Source: Methanobrevibacter sp.
GTDB taxonomy: Archaea > Methanobacteriota > Methanobacteria > Methanobacteriales > Methanobacteriaceae
NCBI RefSeq assembly: GCF_017468685.1
Contig: NZ_JAFUHT010000031.1
Coordinates: forward strand, 1 to 64,000
DNA: 64,000 bases
Direction of reading: 5' to 3'
Shown here in pieces: positions 14,974-54,160 of the stretch. A program made the translations under genes and the position numbers. The notes beneath the pieces are model-generated. The model saw nothing but the letters and a program-made list of their open reading frames with translations, made no database searches and was not told the origin of the DNA. Numbering within the stretch: the stretch's first letter is position 1; each line of letters begins with the position of its first letter.

Positions 14974-16763
14974 TATATCACCTCGCTTTTTACTTTCCAT
15001 TGAATTGACTTGTTAAATTCATCCCACATCCTTGAGTATAAACCGTCATTATCAACCAATTCATCATGACAACCTTTCTCAACAATGCGGCCGTTTTCGA
15101 CGACAAATATATTGTCAACGTTTTTAACTGTGGAAAGCCTATGTGCAATCATTATTACTGTTTTTTCCTTGGTAATCTCTGAAATCGCTTTTTGGATTAG
15201 GTATTCATTTTCAGGATCTGCCAGTGCAGTTGCCTCATCTAAAATGATGATTGGTGCATCTTTAAGTATTGCCCTTGCAAGTGCTATTCTTTGCTGCTGG
15301 CCTCCTGAAAGGTATGTTCCTTCACTGCCTATTACTGTATCAATTCCCTGTGGCAACTCATTGATAATATCATCACATTGTGCAAGGCTCAATGCTTTTA
15401 AAACCTCGCTTCTTGTGGCTCCTTTTCTTCCTATTGCCACATTGTTGTAAATGGAATCTTTGAATAACTTGGTATTCTGGAAAACAAATGAAATGTTTTC
15501 CATCAGCTCTTTTGTTGAAATGTCACGTACATCAACACCTCCAATCCTAATTGATCCTGATTTCACATCCCAGAATCTTGGAATCAATGATGCAATAGTG
15601 GTTTTGCCCCCTCCTGATGGTCCGACCAATGCAACGGAATCATTTTCATTAATTTTTAGATTAATATCATTTAGGATGTGTTCGTCTGATTCTGTTTCAT
15701 CGTAATCAAATATCACGTCTTCAAACTCTATTGAGTGATTTTTTGGTTTTTGAGGATTGACCGCTTCAACCAATGGTTTTTCATTAAGGATTTCTTCAAT
15801 GCTTTCAAGTGCATATCCTGCCAGCATCCAATCCTGTGATACTGACATGATTTTATTCATCATTACTGCACAAATTGGTGTGAAAATCACATAGAAGAGG
15901 AAATCCGCTAAAAATTTAACCTCAACGACAGATCCTGCAAGCAATATTCCTGCCGGAATCAGCAATGCGAAAAATCCGTTTATGGATACTGTAAATGCAG
16001 TCATTGGAAGTTGAGTTGACAAGGCATAGTTTGCAGAGAATTTTCCATAATTTCTGATAGCATCTATGAAGTTCTTGAATGAGTAGACACTTTGCTGGAA
16101 TGCTTTTGTAACTGGAATTCCACGCACATATTCCACAGCTTCAGCATTCATCTTTTCCAGATACATCTGATATTGTGCCATTACGTTTTGTGATTCCTTG
16201 GAAAACATCGGATACATGAATATGAAACATAATATTATCGGTATCAGACATATTAAGCCTAAAACCCAGTCAAAACTGAACAATAATATTAGGAATGCTA
16301 TTGGTGTGACGATTGCACCAACCAGGTCAAATAAGTTGTGTGCAAGAAAGCCTTCAGTTTTTCCTGTACTGAAATCAATGACTTTCCTAAGGCCTCCGCT
16401 TGTATGGTTTGAAAAGTATCCAAGCGGCAATTTAAGCAAGTGGTTTAGGGCAGCATCCTTCATGTTCTTTTCATTTTTAAAAGCAGACAAGTGAGTGCAC
16501 ATCAGTCCGCAGAAATTAAGTGCAATTCCTAAAAATGCAAAGAGAAATGCGTTAAAAGCATAGTCACTTATGTTTTGTGCTTTTGCAAAATCCGGAGCTA
16601 CCATCAAAAGTGCATTAACCACATCCCATATATAGATGAATGGAATCAGCAAACATACAGCACTTATTGCTGATAATATGCAGCCTAAGATTGTCAGATA
16701 TTTGTAGTTTCCAGAATAGTTCAATAATCTGATAAATTTATTTTTATTTTGAGTATTTGCCAT
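14973..16763 (-). CDS. ABC transporter, fused permease-ATPase (IrtA/YbtP-like half transporter)
   Basis: The protein has 596 residues, and the ATG is preceded by GAGGAG. The N-terminal half is the exporter-type membrane domain (helices from about residue 20 to 310). The C-terminal half has GPSGGGKTT, ISFVFQNTKLFKD, LSGGQQQR and IIILDEATALADPENE, where Ala replaces the usual Ser/Leu in the D-loop region. It is the first gene of the two-gene operon, behind a DtxR-like box at 16785. An AraC regulator gene follows upstream on the same strand. An iron- or metal-siderophore uptake role is suggested by context and not shown by the sequence alone. Confidence 0.85.
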   Translation of the reverse strand: MANTQNKNKFIRLLNYSGNYKYLTILGCILSAISAVCLLIPFIYIWDVVNALLMVAPDFAKAQNISDYAFNAFLFAFLGIALNFCGLMCTHLSAFKNEKNMKDAALNHLLKLPLGYFSNHTSGGLRKVIDFSTGKTEGFLAHNLFDLVGAIVTPIAFLILLFSFDWVLGLICLIPIILCFIFMYPMFSKESQNVMAQYQMYLEKMNAEAVEYVRGIPVTKAFQQSVYSFKNFIDAIRNYGKFSANYALSTQLPMTAFTVSINGFFALLIPAGILLAGSVVEVKFLADFLFYVIFTPICAVMMNKIMSVSQDWMLAGYALESIEEILNEKPLVEAVNPQKPKNHSIEFEDVIFDYDETESDEHILNDINLKINENDSVALVGPSGGGKTTIASLIPRFWDVKSGSIRIGGVDVRDISTKELMENISFVFQNTKLFKDSIYNNVAIGRKGATRSEVLKALSLAQCDDIINELPQGIDTVIGSEGTYLSGGQQQRIALARAILKDAPIIILDEATALADPENEYLIQKAISEITKEKTVIMIAHRLSTVKNVDNIFVVENGRIVEKGCHDELVDNDGLYSRMWDEFNKSIQWKVKSEVI

Positions 16764-49448: not shown

Positions 49449-49910
49449 ATGAGAATAGCTATTGTATCTGGAAATGATGAAGGTCCAACAAAACTTAATG
49501 CATTTGATAATGCTTTAACCCAGGCAGGAATTGGTGATGTAAATCTTATAAAAGTTTCTAGCATGCTGGCAGGCAATGCAAAAATAGAAAAGTTGCCAAA
49601 ACTCAAAGCCGGAGCCATGGTGAATTGTGTTTTATCTGAAGTCACTTCTGACAATCCTGGTGATGAAATCACAGCAGTCATCGCGCTAGCTATTGGAGAA
49701 AAACTAGGCTGTGTTGTTGAAACAAGTGGAATCAATAAAGATAATGACGAGCTTATAAAAGAAGCTGAAGAAATGGTCAGATATATGATGGAAAAACGCA
49801 ATGTGGAGATTAAGGAAATGCTGGTTGAATACTCCACAACAAAAGTCAAAAACATTGCATCCGTAGTTTCTTCAGTTGTTTATTTGAATGATGACATTAT
49901 CGAGGGATAG
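49449..49910 (+). CDS. pdaD: Pyruvoyl-dependent arginine decarboxylase
   Basis: The 153-residue protein has the self-cleavage region LIKVSSML, where the second Ser (about Ser38) would become the pyruvoyl group, and the GGD-like ...NPGDEITAVIALAIGEK region. It is somewhat shorter than its Methanocaldococcus homologue at the N-terminus. It makes agmatine from arginine, which SpeB converts to putrescine. The last bases are next to the NAD kinase start. Confidence 0.92.
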   Translation: MRIAIVSGNDEGPTKLNAFDNALTQAGIGDVNLIKVSSMLAGNAKIEKLPKLKAGAMVNCVLSEVTSDNPGDEITAVIALAIGEKLGCVVETSGINKDNDELIKEAEEMVRYMMEKRNVEIKEMLVEYSTTKVKNIASVVSSVVYLNDDIIEG

Positions 49911-49911
49911 G

Positions 49912-51753
49912 ATGGATAAGGAAACTAGAAAAATCGCAAGACATTTGGCAAATAAAATTATCAAAGAAGTCGGACCTGCAGTAAGAGAATATGTCGGAAC
50001 AGATTTGGGAGGAACAGAAGTAAAGACCGGTGCGGACGGAACCCCAACATCATTTATAGATCAGGTAGCTGAAGAGAAAATCATAAACATATTGAAAAAT
50101 GCAGAAGTCTATTCCTACCTAGTCAGCGAAGAAGTTGGAGAGTTAAAGTTAGGAAAAGGAACAAAAAGAAGCATAAATTTAACTCAGGAATTAAGACGTA
50201 CAGATTTAGCTGATGAAGAGACACCAAAATTCATATTTTTAATCGATCCTGTTGACAGAACAAGCAATGCAATTAAAGAAATTCCTGCATATGCAATTTC
50301 TGTAGCAATAGCTGATGTTAATCAGGGACGTGTTGCAACAATAAATGACGTGGAACTAGGATTTTTATACAATTTGGCAAACGGTAACTTTTTTGAAGCC
50401 GAAAAAGGAAAAGGATGCAAATTAAACAATGAAGCAGTAAAACCTAGTGATGTGATTAAAGTCAATGAAATGACATTGGGAGGATTTACAAAAACAGGAA
50501 CTTCAGAAGCTTCAAAACTGGTTGACAGTGCACGTCGTATGAGGGTGCTTGGAAGTGTTGTTTTAGAGCTTTCTTATGTGGCAAGCGGAAAATATGATGC
50601 ATTTCTTGATTTGAGAGGAAGCCGAATAATAGACATTGCAGCTGGAAAATTAATACTTGAAGAAGCCGGAGGAATAATTACCGACAAATACGGCCAGAAA
50701 CTTGATAACGTATTGAGTATTTATGAAAAGGCAATAGTTGTGGCTGCAAATAATAAAATAATGCACAAACAGATTATTGATATTCTAAATGACAATCAAG
50801 CTGAAATAATTGGAAAAATCGGAGTGATTTCAAGAATTGACCAAGACTCTCCGATAGTGTTTGCTGCAAAGATTATTGATTACATCTTCACAAATGGACG
50901 CGAAGTGGTAGTTGAAAAACAGCTGGCACATAAATTACTTGAACTAAAAGAAAATCCCGATTTAAGCAAAATTATTCAGGAAACTAAAGATAATTATCCT
51001 GAAATCGCTTCTGAATTGGATGAAATCGACTTCAACATCGATTATGATAAAATTTCTGAAAATCTCTTTGATTTTGATTGCGATATGGCAATAATTTTAG
51101 GAGGAGATGGAACCCTTCTTAGAGCCCATAATAAAATGAAGGACGAAATTCCAATTTTTGGAATTAACATGGGAACAGTAGGATTTTTAACTGAAATCGA
51201 AGTTAAACACACTTTCGATGCATTGGATGACATATTAAGAGGAGATTATTATAAAGAAAAAAGAACCCGTCTTGTCGTGTCTCACGAAAATCATAATTTC
51301 AAAGCAATGAATGAAGTTGTTGTAATGACTGATAAACCTGCAAAAATGCTTCATTTCCAGATATTAGTTGATGGAGAGATAATTGAAGAAGTCAGAGCAG
51401 ACGGATTAATCATATCAACACCAAGCGGATCTACAGCTTATTCAATGTCTGCCGGAGGACCTATTGTCGATCCGAAAGTTGAAGGATTCATCATAAATCC
51501 AATTTGTCCATACAAGCTAGGAGCAAGACCATTTGTCGTATCAGACAACAGTGAAATAACTGTAAAACTACTTAAAAAAGGTAAAAATGCAGTGTTTGTT
51601 ATGGACGGTCAAATTAATGAAGAGGCAAAATATGAAGAGGAAATCAAATTTAAAAAATCAAGAAAAGATGCGCATTTCATAAGAACCTCTTCAAAATACT
51701 TCTATGAAAAGGTTAAAGACAAATTAAACGAAGGCGGCATTGACAGCAAATAG
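49912..51753 (+). CDS. Bifunctional NADP phosphatase/NAD kinase
   Basis: The start is set at the ATG at 49912 (MDKETRKIARHLANK), behind GAGGGATAGG, giving 613 residues. The N-terminal half is an inositol monophosphatase/FBPase fold: SEEVGE (72-77) and IDPVDRTSNA (111-120), where an Arg replaces the usual Gly of DPxDG(S/T). The C-terminal half is an NAD kinase with GGDGTLLRAHNKM, GTVGFLTE and ISTPSGSTAYSMSAGGP. This fusion matches the Methanocaldococcus MJ0917-type enzyme, which sets the NADP/NAD balance. The Arg in the phosphatase motif is a point to check. Confidence 0.9.
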   Translation: MDKETRKIARHLANKIIKEVGPAVREYVGTDLGGTEVKTGADGTPTSFIDQVAEEKIINILKNAEVYSYLVSEEVGELKLGKGTKRSINLTQELRRTDLADEETPKFIFLIDPVDRTSNAIKEIPAYAISVAIADVNQGRVATINDVELGFLYNLANGNFFEAEKGKGCKLNNEAVKPSDVIKVNEMTLGGFTKTGTSEASKLVDSARRMRVLGSVVLELSYVASGKYDAFLDLRGSRIIDIAAGKLILEEAGGIITDKYGQKLDNVLSIYEKAIVVAANNKIMHKQIIDILNDNQAEIIGKIGVISRIDQDSPIVFAAKIIDYIFTNGREVVVEKQLAHKLLELKENPDLSKIIQETKDNYPEIASELDEIDFNIDYDKISENLFDFDCDMAIILGGDGTLLRAHNKMKDEIPIFGINMGTVGFLTEIEVKHTFDALDDILRGDYYKEKRTRLVVSHENHNFKAMNEVVVMTDKPAKMLHFQILVDGEIIEEVRADGLIISTPSGSTAYSMSAGGPIVDPKVEGFIINPICPYKLGARPFVVSDNSEITVKLLKKGKNAVFVMDGQINEEAKYEEEIKFKKSRKDAHFIRTSSKYFYEKVKDKLNEGGIDSK

Positions 51754-51761
51754 GTGGATTA

Positions 51762-52208
51762 ATGAACAATCTTGTAATTGACCTGACCCATGGTGGAGTA
51801 AAAATAGCCATTAGCCTGGCAAAAAAAGGCAAAAATGTTTTAGCATTTGACCTGTATGACACCCTGAAAGGCATTGATGCCAAAATGCTACAAGTTTATG
51901 ATGTGGAATTAATTCAACTGAAAGATTTGATTAATTTTAAAGGAGATATGAATGTAATTTACCCAATTCATATGCCGTTGTCTTTTGAAGAAATAAAAGA
52001 AAACAATCCTGACTTGAATTATACTTTTCAAACCCATCATGAATGCATCAGGGACCTTCTCAATGATTGGGGAGATGACATTCCAAAAATAGAAGTGACC
52101 GGAGTTAAAGGAAAAACCACTTCAGTTTTTATGCTTAAAGAAATTTTAATTGATGAAAATCCCCTTATTTTATCCAGTCTTGGTGCAATATTATATGAAG
52201 ATAAATAA
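51762..52208 (+). pseudogene. cfbE: Coenzyme F430 synthetase-like Mur ligase, 5' part before an in-frame TAA
   Basis: The 148 codons begin LVIDLTHGGVKIAISLAKKGKNVLAFDLYDTL, characteristic of CfbE. They contain the Mur ligase ATP-binding loop EVTGVKGKTTSVFML and end at TAA (52206-52208) in the middle of the ATPase domain. The same frame continues without a break after the stop, so this is one gene with a nonsense codon (or an error), and not two genes. CfbE joins the last step of F430 synthesis, the nickel cofactor of methyl-coenzyme M reductase. The neighbour hemC fits the tetrapyrrole role. Confidence 0.7.
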
Positions 52209-53180
52209 GAAATAATCCTGAAAAAGGATATTTCAATAACTCCTGCAAACATCAAAGAAACTGTCGATTTGGCTTATAAAATCGCTAATCCAATCTGTAA
52301 AATAGCAGACGGAGTTGTTGAAAGTGAAAATTTAAGAAAATATAACTCTACCATTTTTGAATCATCCCTTGGCGTTAGCGGAATCGGAGATGTTGGACTA
52401 TTATTAAACATTGCTGAAAATTATCCTATCGCAAGAAATAAAAGCTGTGCAAGTGAAGCTAAAAAGCAGATATTCCGATGTCCTTGTGTTTGCATACAAA
52501 AGGAGGCATTGGATGAATATTATAAAGATGTAAAACATGACAAAATCAATACGTTTTCATTAAGTGATTTATCATCAAACCTATTTGTTAAAAAAGCAGA
52601 GTATGATTTAAATCAAACAGAACTTGAAATAATATACAATAATGTCAAAACGATTAATGATCAGATTATTTCAGGTGAAATCAAATTAAAAACATTTGCA
52701 CCAGGACCGCATCATGTAAGCAATGTTTTAGGAGTTGTTTTAAGCTGCCTCAGCTTAGAAATTGATGTCTGCCGAATCATCAAAGGCCTTGAAAATTACA
52801 GAGGAATTCCCGGCAGAACAAATAAAAAGACTGTTGAAAATTCAATAATTATTGAAGAAATAAATCCTGGACTGAATACAGAAGCCATAAAGGAATCTAT
52901 CAATATGATTAATAATTTAAACGATTATTACATTTCAGTTGGAGGAGATTACGGCATAACCTGCGAAGAAATTGATGAAGAAAAATTAACAAAATTCCTA
53001 AATACACTGCAATGTGAGATAATTTTAACTGGAGATTTAGGTTTGTCAATTTCAAAAAAAATAACTAAACCTTATACATATATTGAAAAATACACAGATG
53101 TTTACGATTTAGCTATAAAAACTAATAAGAATCTTCTTTTTATTTATAGATCAGATTACCGTAAAGTTTCACAAAGATGA
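52209..53180 (+). pseudogene. cfbE: Coenzyme F430 synthetase-like Mur ligase, 3' part after the in-frame TAA
   Basis: Reading straight on after the TAA gives EIILKKDISITPANIKETVDLAYKIANPICK and then the rest of the central and C-terminal Mur ligase domains, including SLGVSGIGDVG, KTFAPGPHHVSNVLGVV, RGIPGRTNKK and IEEINPGLNTEAIKESI. The first usable start downstream is a TTG at 52269 with no good ribosome-binding site and it would miss conserved residues. It is therefore the other half of the interrupted gene. The reading frame is otherwise intact, so the mutation is recent or the base is wrong. Confidence 0.7.
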
Positions 53181-53290: not shown

Positions 53291-54160
53291 ATGATTGTAG
53301 GAACACGCGGTAGTCAATTAGCTTTAGCACAAACAAATCAAGTATGTGCAGATTTATCTAAAATAACCGGCGAATCAATTGATGTAGAAATTATTAAAAC
53401 CAAAGGTGATAAGATTACTACATCCCAACTGTACAATATGGATTCCAAAGGACTTTTTACAAAAGAATTGGATATTGCCCTTTTGGAAGAAGAAGTTGAT
53501 TTTACTGTTCACAGTTTTAAAGATTTGCCTACAGAATTAGATGAAGATTTGGAAATTGTTGCTGTTCCTAAAAGAGAATCTCCAAATGAAGTGCTAATCT
53601 CAAAAAAAGACTGGAATGATTTAGGTCCCGGATCAAAACTTGGAACCAGCAGTCTTAGACGAGAAGCTTTTTGTAATCATTACAACAAGGAATTTGAACT
53701 CAAACCTATCAGAGGAAATATTGAAACCAGAATTCAAAAAGCCTTAGAAAGTGATTTGGATGCGACCATAATGGCACAGGCAGGACTGAAAAGATTAAAT
53801 CTAACCAAATATATCAAGAATGTATTTCCACTGGATTATATCACCCCTCCAGCAGGCCAAGGTGCATTGGCAATTATTACTAGAAAAGACAGTGATAAAA
53901 AAGAGGCAATTTCAAAATTAAATGATTACTATTCCATGCAGGAAGTTCTTGCTGAAAAAAAAGTGCTTGAGGAACTTGGCGTTGGTTGCCAATGGCCAAT
54001 AGGTGCAATAGCACGAATGAATGATAATAAATTTAATATTTATTCTATATTATTAACCAAAGAAGGAGAAATCCTAAAAGAACAAAGTGAAAAAGGATCC
54101 ATCAGAGATGCGGTTGAACTTGGCAGACGTATCGGAAAAATTTTCACAGATTATGTTTAG
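53291..54160 (+). CDS. hemC: Hydroxymethylbilane synthase (porphobilinogen deaminase)
   Basis: The 289-residue protein has MIVGTRGSQLALAQTNQV, TKGDKI, HSFKDLPTELDEDLEIVAVPKRESPNEVL, LGTSSLRREA and RGNIETRIQKAL. The cofactor Cys is in ELGVGCQWPIGAIARM. It joins four porphobilinogen units into hydroxymethylbilane for uroporphyrinogen III, the source of F430, corrinoids and siroheme. It directly follows cfbE. Confidence 0.96.
   Translation: MIVGTRGSQLALAQTNQVCADLSKITGESIDVEIIKTKGDKITTSQLYNMDSKGLFTKELDIALLEEEVDFTVHSFKDLPTELDEDLEIVAVPKRESPNEVLISKKDWNDLGPGSKLGTSSLRREAFCNHYNKEFELKPIRGNIETRIQKALESDLDATIMAQAGLKRLNLTKYIKNVFPLDYITPPAGQGALAIITRKDSDKKEAISKLNDYYSMQEVLAEKKVLEELGVGCQWPIGAIARMNDNKFNIYSILLTKEGEILKEQSEKGSIRDAVELGRRIGKIFTDYV

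What the first reader, a model, noticed from the sequence alone, without database searches (positions are those of the whole stretch)
51762..53180. In-frame TAA inside a coenzyme F430 synthetase gene
The two halves are in the same frame, and conserved sequence runs straight through the stop (LYEDK-stop-EIILKKDISITPA). One base change (AAA or similar to TAA) would explain it. The gene is expected to be essential for methanogenesis, so a real loss is surprising. Options are a sequence error, a second cfbE, two complementing fragments, or readthrough. UAA readthrough would be new.
Basis: partly seen in the sequence, partly recalled or inferred. Interest (0 to 1): 0.8.

Follow-up and report, generated by a model that had tools for sequence, protein, structure and literature searches.

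The report
Lone stop codon in methanogen cfbE
A gene that a methane-producing archaeon needs to make its key nickel cofactor carries one misplaced stop codon in this draft genome, most likely a base error or a rare broken copy in the assembly rather than a new way of reading stop codons.

Summary
cfbE (coenzyme F430 synthase), window 51762-53180, carries one in-frame TAA at 52206-52208; read through, it matches NCBIfam F430_CfbE at 372 bits, above the 250-bit cut-off, which neither half reaches. The host is a gut Methanobrevibacter draft (94 contigs, 96% complete). No second cfbE was found in the assembly. Among 152 genomes of the phylum, no other full-length cfbE has an internal stop. The stop replaces a freely varying residue at the tip of a beta-hairpin inside the ATP-binding domain. 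Both halves show no decay, so the change is very recent or not real in the population. No recoding is seen: TAA ends 60% of ORFs, no other conserved gene of about 320 compared has an internal TAA at a coding position, and no UUA-anticodon tRNA was found. Downstream reinitiation has no ATG and no Shine-Dalgarno site. Such drafts do carry lesions in indispensable genes: a 1-base frameshift elsewhere here, a 46-base deletion in a relative's mcrA, an mcr operon cut at a contig end here. Best explanation: consensus error or minority nonsense allele in a mixed-population assembly (about 0.72). A recent real nonsense mutation rescued by leaky readthrough is not excluded; reads are needed. Low interest.

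The parts
51762..53180 (+). cfbE, coenzyme F430 synthase (Mur-ligase-like), interrupted by one in-frame TAA
   Evidence: NF033197 372.6 bits read through; AlphaFold model of the Mur-ligase fold, mean pLDDT 89.9
51762..52208 (+). upstream ORF (148 aa): N-terminal domain plus P-loop VTGVKGKTTS; start preceded by GGTGGA
52206..52208 (+). in-frame TAA at residue 149, tip of the beta-hairpin 141-146/149-154
52209..53180 (+). in-frame continuation (323 aa), fully conserved, no ATG/GTG/TTG before 52269
52269..53180 (+). longest ORF with an allowed start (TTG) after the stop; no Shine-Dalgarno-like sequence, and it would lack the conserved LKKDISITPA strand and motif
49888..51753 (+). upstream neighbour, fused phosphatase/NAD kinase, intact (context; named from its sequence)
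53291..54160 (+). downstream neighbour, hemC (porphobilinogen deaminase-like), intact (context; named from its sequence)

Best explanation
The TAA is a single-base lesion in the assembled consensus of a draft Methanobrevibacter genome from a mixed gut community: either a consensus error or a nonsense allele carried by a minority of cells. The living population carries an intact cfbE that makes F430 in the ordinary way. Shown: the stop, its isolation, the lack of decay, the absence of a second copy in the assembly or of recoding, and lesions of the same class in this and sister drafts. Inferred: that the genome is a metagenome assembly, and that reads or the population would show a sense codon.
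For: The stop is the only defect: at the 135 columns invariant in 41 congeners the window departs at none, in either half, and its nonsynonymous distances to relatives equal those between relatives. No other full-length cfbE among 152 genomes of the phylum has an internal stop, and the closest ones all have sense codons there. No second cfbE lies in the assembly, the only other hit being a 27%-identical partial match over 102 residues, E 6e-6. In about 320 conserved genes of this draft compared with a complete congener there are two clear single-base interruptions, cfbE and a 1-base frameshift at C4:~16488; a reverse scan of the complete genome gave none in 307. Sister drafts show artefact-type lesions in indispensable genes: mcrA with a 46-base deletion in G008. 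In the window's own assembly the mcr operon is cut off after mcrC at a contig end and mcrA is missing. Random substitutions make a stop 5.1% of the time in these genes, half of them TAA.
Against: No reads or coverage could be inspected. Two interruptions against none is not a significant difference between draft and complete genome. The stop sits at a variable loop codon (among the 16% most variable columns), which is where a real change would be best tolerated.
Confidence: 0.72

Rival explanations
1. The nonsense mutation is real, fixed and recent. Low-level misreading of UAA at a permissive loop position yields enough full-length CfbE, because little of this enzyme is needed.
For: Many residues are tolerated at the site, and the downstream half is not decayed. 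PMC11267899 summarises earlier work as showing that a modest drop in F430 has no effect on growth and only a drop of about fivefold or more does.
Against: UAA is the main terminator in this genome (333 of 556 ORFs). No UUA-anticodon tRNA was found. No relative shares the stop.
Confidence: 0.13
2. A real loss: a recent pseudogene in a strain that takes up F430 or is on its way out.
For: The gene as assembled cannot give a full enzyme. mcrA is not in the assembly.
Against: mcrB, mcrD and mcrC are intact and end at a contig edge, so the missing mcrA is an assembly gap; 11 of 28 congeneric assemblies searched, G000 included, also show no mcrA match. No decay in cfbE.
Confidence: 0.06
3. An intact second cfbE lies in the few per cent of the genome that was not assembled or binned.
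For: Completeness is 96%, and the assembly has real gaps.
Against: Relatives with an assembled gene have one full-length cfbE. A redundant copy would also have to be younger than any decay.
Confidence: 0.05
4. Two separately translated fragments assemble into an active enzyme.
For: The break is at a hairpin tip, a place where split proteins can sometimes reassemble (general knowledge).
Against: The first ATG/GTG/TTG after the stop is a TTG 61 bases on with no Shine-Dalgarno-like sequence, and it would drop the conserved LKKDISITPA segment. A genuine in-frame split elsewhere in this genome (L230 ~10.1 kb) has stop-ATG coupling with GGAGG.
Confidence: 0.03
5. UAA is recoded to an amino acid in this lineage or at this site by a dedicated signal.
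For: Only the open frame past the stop.
Against: No other internal TAA at a coding position in about 96,500 aligned residues, apart from a coupled TAA-ATG gene boundary; TAA is the commonest stop; no suppressor tRNA among 34; no conservation of the stop in relatives.
Confidence: 0.01

Closest known systems
CfbE, coenzyme F430 synthase (NCBIfam NF033197)
   Same: Full-length match, invariant residues and P-loop kept, same neighbourhood as in other Methanobrevibacter
   Different: One in-frame TAA at residue 149 in this assembly
Single-base or assembly lesions in draft genomes (e.g. mcrA of G008, cfbE of G134)
   Same: Isolated disruption of an otherwise fully conserved, indispensable gene
   Different: Those are a 46-base deletion and a frameshift at a run of eight A; this one is a clean nonsense codon
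Stop-codon recoding in methanogens (UAG pyrrolysine, UGA selenocysteine; own knowledge)
   Same: In-frame stop within a conserved gene
   Different: UAA is not involved in either; no suppressor tRNA or recurrence found here

Membership tests
CfbE / F430 synthase (NF033197) | Whole-protein score above the curated cut-off (250 bits) | tested here: met
   372.6 bits read through; 128 and 231 for the separate halves
CfbE / F430 synthase (NF033197) | Mur-ligase-like fold with ATP-binding P-loop | tested here: met
   Invariant G114-T119 (GVKGKT); model pLDDT 89.9, best matches are MurC, MurF and MurE structures, E down to 2e-18
CfbE / F430 synthase (NF033197) | One uninterrupted reading frame | tested here: not met
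   TAA at 52206-52208
CfbE / F430 synthase (NF033197) | Converts seco-F430 to F430 with ATP | not testable with these tools
   needs an enzyme assay; reaction described in PMC7242693
Programmed stop-codon readthrough/recoding | In-frame stop conserved among relatives | tested here: not met
   No other full-length cfbE among 152 genomes has it
Programmed stop-codon readthrough/recoding | Cognate suppressor tRNA (UUA anticodon) | tested here: not met
   None among the 34 tRNA genes found; the draft may lack a few
Programmed stop-codon readthrough/recoding | Other genes with the same recoded codon (code change) | tested here: not met
   No other internal TAA at a coding position in about 320 conserved genes
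Decayed pseudogene | Relaxed constraint or further lesions | tested here: not met
   0 of 135 invariant columns changed, nonsynonymous distances normal
Assembly or consensus error / minority allele | Reads show a sense codon or a mixture | not testable with these tools
   no reads available

The most novel reading that the evidence does not exclude
The TAA is fixed, and CfbE, an enzyme methanogenesis needs, is made by unprogrammed UAA readthrough (or from two fragments) in a living methanogen.
Probability: 0.06. Interest if true: 0.7.

Novelty: not a real feature. Interest (0 to 1): 0.13.

Why it matters
If the stop were real and fixed, it would be a natural test of how little CfbE a methanogen needs and of UAA readthrough in archaea. 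As it stands, it mainly warns that lone nonsense codons in draft genomes from mixed communities should not be read as gene loss or recoding without reads.

Tried and rejected
1) Second cfbE in the genome: only a partial match of 27% identity over 102 residues. 2) Loss of methanogenesis: mcrA is absent from the assembly, but mcrB, mcrD and mcrC are intact and the contig ends just past mcrC, and 11 of 28 congeneric assemblies (this one included) show no mcrA match, so this is an assembly gap. 3) Code change: rejected by stop usage and the lack of other internal TAA. 4) Suppressor tRNA: none; the intron-bearing tRNA at C12 reads as a CAT anticodon by eye. 5) Shared stop in relatives: none; stops flagged in the neighbouring kinase gene belong to alignments that mostly begin in the first residues of the query, so I took them as upstream of the real start and did not use that survey as a rate. 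6) Ka/Ks ratios: synonymous sites are saturated, so I used invariant columns and nonsynonymous distances. 8) Literature searches for pseudogenes in Methanobrevibacter and errors in drafts gave nothing useful.

Full report
Observation. The stretch 51762-53180 reads as one frame with a single internal TAA at 52206-52208. Upstream are 148 codons beginning with ATG after GGTGGA; downstream are 323 codons to a TGA. The halves match consecutive parts of NCBIfam F430_CfbE, and together they score 372.6 bits, above its cut-off of 250. The other two forward frames hold 47 and 58 stops.

Host and context. The window is bases 1-64000 of an 81,766-base contig of a draft genome with 94 contigs and 2.28 Mb, 96% complete with 2% contamination. 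The nearest named relatives are uncultured Methanobrevibacter of ruminants and other animals. The gene neighbours (phosphatase/NAD kinase upstream, hemC downstream) are intact, and the order agrees with relatives.

Comparison. Against whole genomes of the phylum, 138 of 152 have a cfbE above cut-off, and among those only the window's has an internal stop. One Methanosphaera-like genome, G134, has the gene split by a frameshift next to a run of eight A. Aligned with 54 relatives, the stop column holds K, R, Q, N, E, V or Y, with indels in distant ones; the flanks SSLGA.LYE and LKK.ISITPA are conserved. Five more relatives also have sense codons. The site is thus a permissive loop, among the 16% most variable columns.

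No decay. At the columns invariant in 41 congeners the window departs at 0 of 41 before and 0 of 94 after the stop. Its nonsynonymous distances to neighbours (0.11-0.16) are like those between neighbours. The stop is therefore very young, or not present in the population, or harmless.

Structure. A model from the alignment (pLDDT 89.9) has a Mur-ligase fold; residue 149 lies at the tip of a hairpin of strands 141-146 and 149-154, between the P-loop (114-119) and the invariant S158-I159-P161 motif. Truncation there cuts the ATPase domain. The first ATG/GTG/TTG afterwards is a TTG at 52269 without a Shine-Dalgarno-like sequence, while cfbE, hemC and other neighbours have GGTG- or GGAG-type sites. 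A separate gene in this genome that appears to be really split in frame (L230, about 10.1 kb) has stop-ATG coupling with GGAGG, which shows what a functional split looks like here.

Recoding. TAA ends 333 of 556 sampled ORFs. In a comparison of 895 kb of this genome with 1.27 Mb of a complete congener, 322 orthologues and about 96,500 residues, the clear interruptions are cfbE and one 1-base frameshift at C4:~16488. Other flagged stops lie before the real start or in the tail, or are the coupled split just named. The reverse scan of the complete genome showed no clear case in 307. Two against none is not significant. No tRNA with a UUA anticodon was found among 34.

Quality of such drafts. mcrA gives no match in this assembly. 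mcrB, mcrD and mcrC are present and intact on contig C90, which ends 54 bases beyond mcrC, where mcrG and mcrA should follow. Of 28 congeneric assemblies searched (this one included), 11 show no mcrA match at all, several more have only its ends, and G008 has a 46-base deletion in it. Methanogens cannot do without MCR (own knowledge), so these are most simply assembly faults, and they set the standard by which a lone stop in cfbE should be judged.

Judgement. A consensus error or minority nonsense allele is the best explanation (0.72). From one nonsense in about 96,500 codons, and 5.1% of random substitutions making a stop, the implied substitution error is of the order of 1 in 10,000 bases; this is inference from a single event. 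A real, recent nonsense mutation that is tolerated because F430 demand is low is possible: PMC11267899 summarises earlier work as showing that only a drop of about fivefold or more in F430 harms growth. Reads would settle it.

Noticed in passing
L229 (G000:C90) 1-2602: The mcr operon of the window's genome is cut by a contig end: mcrB, mcrD and mcrC are intact, mcrG and mcrA are missing; 11 of 28 congeneric assemblies searched (this one included) show no mcrA match.
   Followed up: yes
L228 (G008:C14) ~1600-1650: mcrA of a sister draft is broken into two frames by a 46-base deletion relative to a complete congener, probably an assembly junction.
   Followed up: yes
L227 (G134:C2) ~1490-1512: cfbE of a Methanosphaera-like genome is split into two overlapping frames next to a run of eight A; sequencing slip or real slippage not distinguished.
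   Followed up: partly
G000:C4 ~16473-16488 (L086): One-base frameshift in a small conserved Cys-rich protein of the window's genome, 89% identical to the congener up to the break.
   Followed up: partly
L230 (G000:C13) ~10863-9610, minus strand: A membrane protein that is one chain in G028 is two coupled genes here: TAA directly followed by ATG with GGAGG upstream; looks like a natural split.
   Followed up: partly
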